Part shown: positions 1-1,595 of the stretch, piece by piece
Layout of the letters: every line of letters begins with the position of its first letter
Numbering within the stretch: the stretch's first letter is position 1
From: Selenomonas ruminantium AC2024
Lineage (GTDB): Bacteria > Bacillota > Negativicutes > Selenomonadales > Selenomonadaceae
Assembly (NCBI RefSeq): GCF_000687995.1
Contig: NZ_JIAC01000001.1
Coordinates: forward strand, 2,170,001 to 2,234,000
Length of the DNA: 64,000 nucleotides
Direction: 5' to 3'
The notes under the pieces: generated by a model
Seen by the model: the letters and a program-made list of their open reading frames with translations, nothing else
The model's database searches: none
What the model was told of the DNA's origin: nothing
Program-made: the position numbers and the translations under genes

Positions 1-127
1 CATCTACATTTGCTGCCATAGATTTAGAATTATCTTTTGGGCGACGGATTTCGAATCCACCTCTTCCTCTCCCACCAGCTACCATGTCCATTTCCATATT
101 GTCCATCTTATTCATGAGCTTTTCCAT
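1..127 (-). CDS. double-glycine-leader peptide precursor, copy 1 (3' end outside window)
   Basis: A small gene running off the window edge; 42 codons are visible. The ATG ends at 127 and follows an AAGGAGG ribosome site at 136-142. The first 19 residues end in MDMVAGG and match the other two copies (202-357, 406-549) closely. Hydrophobic residues at -12 and -7, Glu at -8, Val at -4 and Gly-Gly at -2/-1 are the known pattern of leaders cut by C39-peptidase ABC exporters. The part after the leader is unrelated to the other copies, is Arg/Gly-rich and begins RGRGGFEIRRPK. Inference: a secreted bacteriocin-type or signalling peptide. No exporter, immunity or modifying enzyme is visible here; they would lie to the left. 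Confidence 0.72.
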   Translation of the reverse strand, partial: MEKLMNKMDNMEMDMVAGGRGRGGFEIRRPKDNSKSMAANVD

Positions 128-201
128 TTTATTTTCCTCCTTACAGTCTGATGATATGCCCTCTGCCACGACTTATGTTGTTGTATAATCAAGAGGCCTT
201 T

Positions 202-357
202 TCACGGTATTTTGATAAGTCTGTTTGGGCTAACCGTGGGCTTTTTAGGGGGCTTATCCTTTTTAAGAAATCTAAGGAATTTAGGAAATTCCACTTTCCC
301 ACCAGCTACCATGTCCAGTTCCATATCTTCCAGCTTGTTCATCATCAGCTTATCCAT
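202..357 (-). CDS. double-glycine-leader peptide precursor, copy 2 (cationic, Pro/Lys-rich core)
   Basis: A 51-codon gene with a strong GAGGAGG ribosome site just upstream of the ATG ending at 357. The 20-residue leader ends MELDMVAGG, the same as copy 3 apart from a few positions. The predicted core has 31 residues beginning KVEFPKFLRF, with eight Lys, two Arg, six Pro and only two acidic residues, so its net charge is about +8. It has no Cys, so no disulfide or lanthionine is possible. It resembles an unmodified membrane-active bacteriocin, but I recognise no family. About 45 bases upstream are repeated upstream of copy 3, which points to gene duplication followed by core replacement. Confidence 0.75.
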   Translation of the reverse strand: MDKLMMNKLEDMELDMVAGGKVEFPKFLRFLKKDKPPKKPTVSPNRLIKIP

Positions 358-405
358 TTTATTTTCCTCCTCACAATCTTGAGTGTTGTTTTTGCTTTCT
401 GTTCT

Positions 406-549
406 CTAAAACGGCAGTAATTCTCTCAATCTCTTTACAACCGGGTTAGAGACTTGTTTGATAGCTTCTTTGAGAGTATCACATAAACCTCCACCAGCTA
501 CCATGTCCAGTTCCATATCGTCCAGCTTATTCATGAATTTCTTGTCCAT
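406..549 (-). CDS. double-glycine-leader peptide precursor, copy 3 (amphipathic core)
   Basis: A 47-codon gene; the ATG ending at 549 follows GAGGAGG. The 20-residue leader carries the NKLDDMELDMVAGG signature shared with copy 2. The predicted core has 27 residues beginning GLCDTLKEAI, with one Cys, net charge near +2 and regularly spaced hydrophobic residues that suggest an amphipathic helix. This is the most upstream copy. A weak promoter (TACACA, 17 bp, TATAAA) can be drawn at about 596-624 on the minus strand. Leader conservation with core divergence is typical of multi-peptide bacteriocin loci. Function is inferred from the leader only. Confidence 0.75.
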   Translation of the reverse strand: MDKKFMNKLDDMELDMVAGGGLCDTLKEAIKQVSNPVVKRLRELLPF

Positions 550-654
550 TTTATATTCCTCCTCACATCTTAGCGTGTTGTTATCTTGCTTTCTGTTCTT
601 TATATCCCCGAAAGCGAAAAGTGTGTAGGAGAAAATAAAATTTTTTGCTTCCCC

Positions 655-1113
655 TCATAACTTTATCCGCCCGACCTTATTCTCCTTGTAGCTGTAAAAG
701 AGGTTATCCCCCAGTATCACATGGTCTAATACTGGGATTTCCATAATGTCCCCGCAGAGCATTAAATGCTGCGTTACCTTTATATCCTCTTTGCTGGGCG
801 CGGGCCTGCCGGATGGGTGGTTATGAGCCACGATAATCGCGGACGCTGAATAGCCCATTGCATCACGGAACACTTCCCGGGGATGTACCACCGCTCCCGA
901 CAGGCTACCCACCGATACAACAGACGTTCCAATCAGACGGTGATGGGTGTTCAAGGCCAGCAGCATAAAGTGCTCCTGATTCTCTCCTTTTAGTTTCGGC
1001 ATTAAATGCCTGGCCACATCCTCGGGGCCGTTTATCACCCGCAGCGTGCGCTCCGTAAAAACTTCCGCGGGAATATTCAGCAGCTCGGCCAGCAGTTCCC
1101 CATGACTTTTCAT
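655..1113 (-). CDS. RadC-family JAMM (JAB) domain protein, mobile-element type
   Basis: About 152 residues, covering only the C-terminal metalloprotease-like JAB domain of RadC without the N-terminal helix-hairpin-helix part. The metal motif is clear: HPREVF supplies the Glu and VAHNHPSGRPAPSKED supplies the H-x-H-x(7)-S-x(2)-D set. The start was placed at the ATG ending at 1113 because homologous sequence begins there and farther upstream codons run through an integrase fragment on the other strand. Short RadC-like proteins of this form are common on plasmids, prophages and integrated islands; their role is unknown. It fits the mobile-island setting between the peptide genes and tRNA-Leu. 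Confidence 0.8.
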   Translation of the reverse strand: MKSHGELLAELLNIPAEVFTERTLRVINGPEDVARHLMPKLKGENQEHFMLLALNTHHRLIGTSVVSVGSLSGAVVHPREVFRDAMGYSASAIIVAHNHPSGRPAPSKEDIKVTQHLMLCGDIMEIPVLDHVILGDNLFYSYKENKVGRIKL

Positions 1114-1117
1114 AATT

Positions 1118-1303
1118 ATGTCCCAATCTTTGTTCCACATGCTGCGACATGACATGGCCAGCCGGATGAAGGGCACCCACATGTTTGACCTCAAAGATAT
1201 ACAGGCGCAACTGGGCCATTCCAGCATCCAAGTCACCATGGATATATATACCCACATCGACGAGGAACAGAACCAAAAAGTCAGCGGCTGGCTGGCGGCG
1301 TAA
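1118..1303 (+). pseudogene. C-terminal remnant of a tyrosine recombinase (phage/ICE integrase)
   Basis: About 61 codons end at the TAA at 1303. They carry the C-terminal catalytic half of a tyrosine recombinase: LRHDMASRMK (the H-x-x-R box), LGHSS (second His) and TMDIYTHI (the Tyr nucleophile). The N-terminal domain and first catalytic Arg are missing. An in-frame stop lies just upstream at 1103-1105, where RadC begins on the opposite strand, so the gene was truncated at that junction. It sits about 200 bp from the 3' end of tRNA-Leu, the usual place for such an integrase. It cannot be active alone. Confidence 0.8.
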
Positions 1304-1508: not shown

Positions 1509-1595
1509 TGGTGCCGATGATCGGAGTCGAACCGATACGTTGTTGCCAACGGCAGATTTTGAGTCTGCTGCGTCTGCCAATTCCGCCACATCGGC
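1509..1595 (-). tRNA. tRNA-Leu (anticodon CAA)
   Basis: Read on the minus strand it begins GCCGATGTGGCGG and ends with the matching acceptor strand, discriminator A and an encoded CCA (1509-1511). The anticodon loop is CTCAAAA, giving CAA, which reads UUG. The long variable arm (CGTTGGCAACAACG) marks a class II tRNA. The 3' end faces the integrase stump, consistent with use as an attachment site by the island at 1-1500. Confidence 0.95.

What the first reader, a model, noticed from the sequence alone, without database searches (positions are those of the whole stretch)
1..549. Three tandem peptide genes with a shared double-glycine leader and unrelated cores
Seen: leaders ending MVAGG with about 20 near-identical residues, then three unrelated cores (Arg/Gly-rich; Lys/Pro-rich with net charge about +8; amphipathic with one Cys). 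The L(-12), E(-8), L(-7), V(-4), GG pattern is the known signal for C39-peptidase ABC exporters. Conservation of leader and 5' region against core change suggests swapping of bioactive peptides behind one export signal. I do not recognise the peptides as a described bacteriocin family.
Basis: partly seen in the sequence, partly recalled or inferred. Interest (0 to 1): 0.8.

Follow-up and report, generated by a model that had tools for sequence, protein, structure and literature searches.

The report
Scattered family of exported peptide genes
A rumen bacterium carries about twenty small genes that share the same start region and export tag but end in very different peptides, which looks like a swappable set of secreted weapons or signals sent out by a shared exporter encoded elsewhere in the genome.

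Summary
The three genes are the end of a larger array. The complete 2.83 Mb genome holds 20 such genes at seven places. Between genes, the upstream 90 bp (median 89% identity) and leader (82%) are conserved, while cores (45%) are no more alike than shuffled sequence (45%). Leaders of this type occur in 9 of 22 genus genomes, all among the 13 with an NHLM exporter over cut-off. A matching promoter-like sequence occurs in 19 of 189 family genomes, 18 of them exporter-positive. Unforeseen: two classes with different upstream blocks and leaders, one mostly basic and one acidic, recur as head-to-head pairs about 180 bp apart. Most likely this is an unmodified, microcin/class II-like peptide arsenal, diversified by recombination and gene transfer. 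Export and cleavage are inferred, not shown; antimicrobial action, immunity and expression are untested. It is a new variant of a known kind (double-glycine peptides with a C39 exporter), not a new kind of system.

The parts
406..549 (-). precursor gene 1 (class A): leader MDKKFMNKLDDMELDMVAGG, core GLCDTLKEAIKQVSNPVVKRLRELLPF
   Evidence: ORF; leader pattern match; homologous longer cores GLFDT../GFFDI.. in G001 and G014
202..357 (-). precursor gene 2 (class A): core KVEFPKFLRFLKKDKPPKKPTVSPNRLIKIP, net +8
   Evidence: ORF; same core at G000:2164615 and, with 1 change, in G017
1..127 (-). precursor gene 3 (class A), runs 64 bases past the left edge of the window: core RGRGGFEIRRPKDNSKSMAANVDETQMKLPIGKLPIGGGHKINV
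   Evidence: L004:14937-15128
586..613 (-). class A promoter-like 28-mer TTTCGGGGATATAAAGAACAGAAAGCAA; the only full copy ahead of the three genes, so they probably form one transcription unit (inference)
   Evidence: 12 copies in the genome, 8 exact and 4 with one mismatch, reversed-pattern control 0; genes 2 and 3 lack a full copy
655..1257 (-). radC-family gene directly upstream of the three genes (neighbour)
   Evidence: TIGR00608 over cut-off; radC pieces also elsewhere in this array and, by reading, beside the 248 kb array
1509..1595 (-). tRNA-Leu(CAA); an array lies on its 3' side in four genomes (neighbour, possible insertion site)
   Evidence: ARAGORN; marker mapping

Best explanation
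This is a dispersed multigene family of secreted-peptide precursors. Each unit is a conserved cassette (promoter-like block, ribosome-binding site, about 20-residue C39-type leader) joined to a variable core. Shown: the cassettes, their distribution, the conserved 5' part against variable cores, and the presence of C39 exporters. Inferred step 1: the NHLM-type exporter (C39-ABC subunit, second ABC subunit, membrane-fusion adaptors, and in the 2.51 Mb operon an outer-membrane channel) recognises the last ~13 leader residues, cuts after GG (or GA/GS) and moves the core across both membranes. Inferred step 2: the cores act outside the cell, most likely as unmodified microcin/class II-like antimicrobial peptides against rumen competitors. 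Some basic cores are amphipathic and others rich in Pro/Arg; most of the acidic class are amphipathic. Inferred step 3: recombination between the repeated 5' regions, duplication and transfer between genera keep renewing the cores.
For: Two TIGR03796 exporters over cut-off in the genome, with adaptors; all 20 genus ABC1 rows keep the WEFNHF block; their ECGA Cys block was the criterion by which the rows were picked. All 9 leader-positive genus genomes are among the 13 exporter-positive of 22 (p=0.0014); 18 of 19 motif-positive family genomes are exporter-positive, against 103 of 189 overall (p=8.6e-5). In four genomes the promoter motif lies 2.6-5.8 kb from an NHLM gene (coordinates); in G014 and G187 it leads into a GG-leader ORF, in G141 and G164 no such ORF was picked. 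Several NHLM operons have their own local GG-leader ORFs. Identity upstream/leader/core 0.89/0.82/0.45, shuffled 0.45. Within core families pN/pS is 0.11-0.83 in 9 of the 11 families that gave a value line.
Against: No expression, cleavage or activity data. No immunity gene identified. Exporters are not linked to the cassettes in this genome, and the 12 NHLM upstream regions looked at lack the cassette motifs. The association tests ignore shared ancestry. Three exporter-positive genus genomes (G005, G006, G008) showed no cassette by leader or promoter pattern, and 85 exporter-positive family genomes lack the promoter motif. One motif-positive genome (G009, 68% complete) has no C39 exporter over cut-off. 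Some cassettes are stubs (cores of 6, 6, 7 and 9 residues), so not all are functional. pN/pS is 2.1 in the GLFDT family, to which window gene 1 belongs, and in the RKK family no synonymous change was seen; few sites in all. Many cores, the acidic class above all, would be unusual bacteriocins.
Confidence: 0.58

Rival explanations
1. The peptides are cell-cell signals (pheromones) rather than weapons, as for BlpC/ComC-type double-glycine peptides.
For: One acidic class B peptide (SWWDDL..) gives a weak match to the BlpC pheromone model (E 5.8e-5, 22.8 bits, cut-off 70). Small, strongly conserved cores such as KRYVYP recur in G000, G001, G014, G015 and G017.
Against: No LytTR regulator (the Blp/Com output type, recalled) anywhere in the genome. 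Too many unrelated cores per genome for one signalling circuit. No receptor kinase was noticed among the ORFs read around the cassettes, though none was searched for.
Confidence: 0.17
2. Basic (A) and acidic (B) peptides are made as matched pairs: they act together as a two-component toxin, or the acidic one neutralises or chaperones the basic one and so protects the producer.
For: 8 head-to-head A|B pairs with start-to-start distance 175-184 bp and a conserved intergenic region; no A|A or B|B divergent pair under 600 bp. Charges: 48 unique A cores -3 to +8, 17 unique B cores -11 to 0 (Mann-Whitney 1.9e-9; related cores are not independent). B leaders are also C39-type, so both would be exported.
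Against: The same B core (SWLDD..) faces different A cores (KIFSEL stub, RCNPGG, RGYVPM), so there is no fixed pairing. The first of these A cores is only 6 residues. 44 of the 52 class A genes and 11 of the 19 class B genes are not in such a pair.
Confidence: 0.2
3. The cassettes are mainly a mobile repeat (selfish DNA) whose ORFs are by-products and are not exported.
For: Near-identical 5' DNA in many copies and five genera; the window's array beside tRNA-Leu with radC pieces, an IS66-like fragment and a radical-SAM mobile pair; truncated copies.
Against: Leader residues keep the C39 motif. Core families show pN/pS below 1 in 9 of 11. Cassettes go with the exporter genomes. No terminal repeats or transposase common to the sites were noticed (not tested).
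Confidence: 0.1

Closest known systems
NHLP / Nif11 (N11P) precursors with the TIGR03794/03796/03797 export system
   Same: Same exporter families (TIGR03796 over cut-off twice; TIGR03797 and TIGR03794 over cut-off for the L005 operon); GG end, hypervariable core; species distribution tied to the exporter, as in PMC2887384 (passages read)
   Different: Leader is about 20 residues with no NHase-like or Nif11-like domain (none of 6 cassette peptides matched those models); no modification enzyme among the 10 proteins of the two loci scanned with Pfam; genes not clustered with the exporter
Prochlorosins (ProcA/SyncA) of marine picocyanobacteria
   Same: Many precursors per genome, conserved leader with Gly-Gly, diverse cores, genes that can be scattered over the genome (PMC10783134, passages read)
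   Different: Those have long Nif11-type leaders and a promiscuous LanM enzyme (same passages); none was noticed here, but none was searched for genome-wide
Class II microcins (E. coli and relatives)
   Same: GG/GA leader, C39-ABC exporter, membrane-fusion protein, TolC-type channel (parts as listed in PMC9746304, passages read)
   Different: No cognate immunity gene found; 20 genes in one genome; peptide genes far from the exporter
Class II bacteriocin and Blp-type double-glycine peptides of Gram-positives
   Same: Leader pattern (TIGR03949/TIGR01847/BlpC models, all below cut-off)
   Different: Export operon with an outer-membrane channel; no LytTR match; cores unrelated by the scans made
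Cyanobacterial C39/bacteriocin clusters
   Same: Many precursors (290 in 58 genomes) with poorly conserved cores (PMC3140520, abstract and one section read)

Membership tests
C39 double-glycine peptide precursor | leader with hydrophobic -12, E -8, hydrophobic -7, hydrophobic -4, G -2, G/A/S -1 | tested here: met
   42 class A and 13 class B distinct leaders; the pattern used to pick them restricts -9 to -1 but not -12. Consensus for -12, -8, -7 and GG/GA/GS from PMC6363468 (passages)
C39 double-glycine peptide precursor | C39-peptidase ABC exporter in the same genome | tested here: met
   PF03412 over cut-off at two places (a third, weak match is below cut-off); TIGR03796 over cut-off
C39 double-glycine peptide precursor | leader actually cut by that exporter | not testable with these tools
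   needs biochemistry
NHLP/Nif11 precursor family | NHase-like or Nif11-like leader domain | tested here: not met
   no such NCBIfam match for the 6 cassette peptides scanned, even at E 10
NHLP/Nif11 precursor family | distribution tied to TIGR03796 exporter | tested here: met
   18 of 19 motif-positive genomes against 103 of 189; not phylogeny-corrected
Class II microcin | C39-ABC exporter, membrane-fusion protein and TolC-type channel | tested here: met
   L006 operon: TIGR03796, HlyD/RND-type adaptor, OEP
Class II microcin | cognate immunity protein gene near the peptide gene | tested here: inconclusive
   none recognised by reading the ORFs around the arrays; no systematic search
Class II microcin | antibacterial activity | not testable with these tools
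   needs assay
Blp/Com pheromone | LytTR response regulator | tested here: not met
   PF04397: 0 matches in the genome; control rings in 5 of 14 genomes
Prochlorosin-like lanthipeptide | LanM modification enzyme | not tested
   no genome-wide LanM search was run

The most novel reading that the evidence does not exclude
A combinatorial, horizontally exchanged peptide arsenal of diderm Firmicutes in which one promoter-leader cassette is re-used with dozens of unrelated cores, and basic and acidic peptides are co-expressed head to head from a shared ~180 bp control region so that the acidic partner tunes or neutralises the basic one, a built-in, exported self-protection replacing dedicated immunity genes.
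Probability: 0.15. Interest if true: 0.8.

Novelty: new variant of a known kind. Interest (0 to 1): 0.55.

Why it matters
If the cores are secreted antimicrobials, this is a sizeable library of short, apparently unmodified peptides from rumen bacteria: 65 distinct cores (48 class A, 17 class B, many of them related) in the stretches examined. Mining that looks for precursors beside exporters or modifying enzymes could miss it. Two rumen surveys opened here do not describe it in what I saw: the Hungate1000 bacteriocin paper has no mention of Selenomonas, Anaerovibrio or NHLP in its main text (PMC13289728, term search), and in the passages shown of the rumen gene-cluster paper the Selenomonas clusters that are specified are sactipeptides (PMC8241843; its 1,943 'bacteriocin' clusters were not examined). 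The conserved cassette gives a handle to find members by upstream block and leader alone, and the A/B pairing makes a concrete question (partner, antagonist or independent) directly testable with synthetic peptides.

Tried and rejected
Exporter beside the array: rejected; the stretch to the left holds more peptide genes, an IS66-like fragment (below cut-off), a radical-SAM mobile pair and a nitroreductase-like gene (named by recall; no NCBIfam match), no exporter. A third, weak C39-like match in the genome (21.1 bits, cut-off 22) was not pursued.

LytTR-type quorum sensing: 0 LytTR matches.

Cassette motifs in front of the NHLM operons: 350 bases before the chosen start of 12 operons scanned with 12-mers of the two consensus blocks (one mismatch allowed); one hit, a low-complexity repeat, so co-regulation is not shown. 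An ECF sigma factor was recognised in 16 of the 20 NHLM stretches and could drive the cassettes; this is only an idea.

Proline-rich antimicrobial peptide likeness (IMPYPRPRPRPRK.., KIFPRPRPGC..): resemblance recalled; a PDB sequence search with one core gave one hit, unrelated, at E 0.61.

Fold of the ~98-residue FDYGYG core: model poor (mean pLDDT 43, 3 sequences), so no fold search was made.

Inverted repeat TTGCTTTC..GAAAGCAA around the promoter-like block: seen in many own-genome copies, but the left arm is not kept in many relatives, so dropped.

Horizontal transfer: cassette DNA is 90.8% identical over 217 bp between G017 and G165, and 90.3% over 238 bp between G011 and G029, while trmD of G165 and G029 is 76.0% and 72.7% identical to that of G000. 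These are among the highest of many pairs listed; trmD was compared with G000, not between the same pairs; and the shared front is under constraint. Suggestive only.

pN/pS: uncorrected proportions pooled over pairs; pairs under 40% core identity were left out; 12 families were named in the script, one (VDV) returned nothing because of a slip in its pattern.

Papers: search listings only for beyond those opened; PMC4579445 (rumen bacteriocin survey) is not held. No paper describing this family was seen in those eight listings; most subscription papers are not in the library.

Format errors; each repeated in corrected form (13, 47, 54, 90): 13 without the L003 row and with another exporter protein instead, 47 and 90 with partly other terms, 54 without the row that had stops. 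One search was this report with four fields in the wrong form.

Full report
OBSERVATION. The three ORFs exist at the stated place on the minus strand. The third runs 64 bases past the left edge; its full core is RGRGGFEIRRPKDNSKSMAANVDETQMKLPIGKLPIGGGHKINV. The window is bases 2170001-2234000 of a single 2,831,713-base chromosome.

THE SET IS LARGER. A degenerate DNA pattern for MExDxV(A/S/T)GG and like leaders matches the genome 17 times exactly, once with one mismatch and three times with two; the reversed pattern matches 0 times. Of the three 2-mismatch hits, one (317.9 kb) is a family member, one (1246.1 kb) is a GG-leader ORF with a different leader, and one (2729.4 kb) was not inspected. 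The promoter search added one more gene with a GS end at 2.718 Mb. Total counted: 20 genes, 15 class A and 5 class B, at seven places: 247-248 kb (4 genes), 294 kb, 318 kb (2), 1290 kb, 1760 kb, 2161-2171 kb (10, ending with the three of the window) and 2718 kb. Two GG-leader ORFs with other leaders lie at 1.246 and 1.250 Mb and are not counted.

CONSERVED FRONT, VARIABLE CORE. Over all 105 class A pairs in this genome the median DNA identity is 0.89 for the 90 bases upstream, 0.82 for the leader, 0.45 for the core and 0.59 for the 80 bases downstream; shuffled cores give 0.447. The 28-mer TTTCGGGGATATAAAGAACAGAAAGCAA occurs 12 times (8 exact, 4 with one mismatch, control 0). In the window only the first gene has it in full (586-613); the other two follow after 48 and 74 bases, so the three are probably one transcription unit (inference).

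TWO CLASSES. Class B genes have another upstream block (AATCGTAAGTATAGACAAAGGTAAACAAAGTCAACTAAG: 4 in this genome, 11 in 4 of 22 genus genomes) and leaders starting MMDKKEL or similar. In 71 genes collected from the stretches held, sorted by leader alone, the 48 unique class A cores have net charge -3 to +8 and the 17 unique class B cores -11 to 0 (Mann-Whitney p 1.9e-9; related cores are not independent). Picking a gene needed a leader match and a ribosome-binding site, so members with other leaders are left out, e.g. L161, which has the B block and a core that I count by hand as net -3. Eight A|B pairs stand head to head with starts 175-184 bp apart and a well conserved intergenic region; no divergent A|A or B|B pair under 600 bp was found.

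ARE THE CORES CODING? Within 11 core families pN/pS is 0.11 (FDYGYG) to 0.83 (KVEF) in nine, 2.1 in GLFDT (the family of window gene 1), and undefined in RKK, where no synonymous change was seen. Numbers of sites are small. By helical moment 21 of 61 cores of 18 residues or more exceed their own shuffles at p<=0.05 (12 of 16 class B, 9 of 45 class A, by my tally of the list; no correction for multiple tests or relatedness). Stub cores of 6, 6, 7 and 9 residues show decay.

EXPORTER. PF03412 (C39) is over cut-off twice, with a third match below it. Both are NHLM exporters: TIGR03796 at 979 and 970 bits, cut-off 853. The 1.148 Mb operon has two adaptors (one TIGR03794), C39-ABC, second ABC (TIGR03797) and an ECF sigma factor. 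The 2.51 Mb operon has an adaptor, C39-ABC, a second ABC protein, an outer-membrane channel and an ECF sigma factor. In the 20 genus ABC1 rows the WEFNHF block is kept throughout; the rows were picked by their ECGA block. In relatives several NHLM operons have their own local GG-leader ORFs (the output was cut in the middle).

DISTRIBUTION. Genus: leader pattern (up to 1 mismatch) in 9 of 22 genomes; TIGR03796 over cut-off in 13 of 22; all 9 are among the 13 (Fisher p 0.0014). In the ABC1 tree (20 rows) one clade of 12 covers all nine; counting G009 and G010, which have cassettes by the promoter, cassettes occur in 10 of 12 genomes with that clade and 1 of 10 without (p 9.5e-4; the clade was chosen after seeing the data). 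Family: the promoter 22-mer (up to 1 mismatch) in 19 of 189 genomes and 5 of 30 genera, control 0; exporter at E<=1e-200 in 103 of 189; overlap 18 of 19 (p 8.6e-5). The other 85 exporter-positive genomes lack the motif, so the exporter probably has other substrates. These tests do not correct for ancestry.

PROMOTER TO GENE. Of 16 promoter-like sites (up to 2 mismatches) in the 13 further stretches fetched, 10 lead directly into a GG/GS-leader ORF and 6 do not. Of 64 promoter-like sites (A or B, up to 4 mismatches) in the earlier stretches, 50 lead to an ORF with GG somewhere in its first 40 residues (one of them, L160, looks Sec-secreted instead); the other 14 are 5 GS ends, 1 GA end, 3 without a start found, 3 wrong or very short picks and 2 that look Sec-secreted. 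A scan of genome contigs (84,980 species) for the exact leader pattern gave 35 stretches. By record title 27 are Selenomonas, Anaerovibrio or Veillonellaceae; of the other 8, three (L067, L069, L094) show a plausible but different GG-leader ORF and five look like chance.

LOCATION. In G000, G014, G004 and G017 an array lies on the 3' side of tRNA-Leu(CAA). G000 and G014 share asd-dapB-recG-[array]-tRNA-Leu-MCP, with trmD beyond. Not all cassettes do: stretches L116 (G001), L028 (G000, 247 kb) and L133 (G017) hold cassettes and no tRNA. In five cassette-free genomes (G002, G005, G007, G008, G016) no tRNA lies within the stretch taken beside trmD, so those are no clean empty sites. The G000 array also holds a radical-SAM mobile pair with its MarR regulator (three NCBIfam models over cut-off), an IS66-like fragment (below cut-off) and a radC piece. 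Cassette DNA of different genera can be about 90% identical over 217-238 bp. Together this points to recombination and transfer (inference).

MECHANISM AND RIVALS. See the best explanation. The leader consensus Leu(-12)-X3-Glu(-8)-Leu(-7), double-Gly ends GG/GA/GS and cleavage of a synthetic peptide with the last 13 leader residues are from PMC6363468 (passages read) and match what is seen here. Antimicrobial action is judged the most likely role because of core number, diversity and the company of similar systems (PMC9746304, PMC2887384; passages), but nothing here tests it. Signalling, a paired acidic/basic system and a mobile repeat remain open.

NOVELTY. Double-glycine peptides with C39 exporters are well known, as are scattered precursors with one processing system (prochlorosins, PMC10783134, passages). 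New in combination, as far as the eight paper searches show: a short-leader, apparently unmodified, dispersed family on an NHLM-type exporter in Selenomonas and related genera, with a strongly conserved upstream block and recurring divergent acid/basic pairs.

Noticed in passing
L004:10317-12348 (G000:2165316-2167347), inside the array: Radical SAM mobile pair proteins A and B with their MarR regulator (TIGR04470/04471/04472, all over cut-off), sitting between peptide cassettes.
   Followed up: partly
L153:8585-8941 -, L126:9052-9408 -, L159:3156-3512 +: A ~98-residue, strongly conserved core (FDYGYG..) behind the same promoter-like block and a leader ending GS; pN/pS 0.11; no Pfam match; could be a folded secreted protein of unknown function.
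   Followed up: partly
L122:13183, L133:7206, L160:3029 (promoter sites): Three small proteins with Sec-type signal peptides (by reading) behind class A-like sites (3-4 mismatches); possible co-regulated partners or immunity proteins.
   Followed up: no
NHLM stretches L005, L006, L135-L140, L142, L144-L147, L149, L150, L152: An ECF sigma factor was recognised in 16 of 20 NHLM stretches of the genus (not found by text pattern in L141, L143, L148, L151); its target promoter is unknown and could be the cassette promoter.
   Followed up: partly
L005:7829-8014 -, L137:14899-15117 +, L139:2736-2954 -, L150:213-425 -: A second type of small protein next to NHLM operons with ..LSxDELDxVxAAG(G).. or similar and a charged tail, a possible further precursor family.
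   Followed up: no
class A cores at L115:970, L116:9556, L028:10246, and behind the promoter site L126:8582: Variable Pro/Arg-rich heads (such as PRPRPRPR) joined to a recurring tail built from NANSMAANVDETQ and KLPIG repeats, with changing repeat number between genes.
   Followed up: partly
DNA just after the -10-like TATAAA of class A: GAACAGAAAGCAA: In genes picked by leader alone about 12 bases downstream of the presumed -10 are nearly unchanged in the copies that have the block, more than a simple promoter would need; reason unknown. (The 62 sites were picked by this very string and are no independent evidence.)
   Followed up: no
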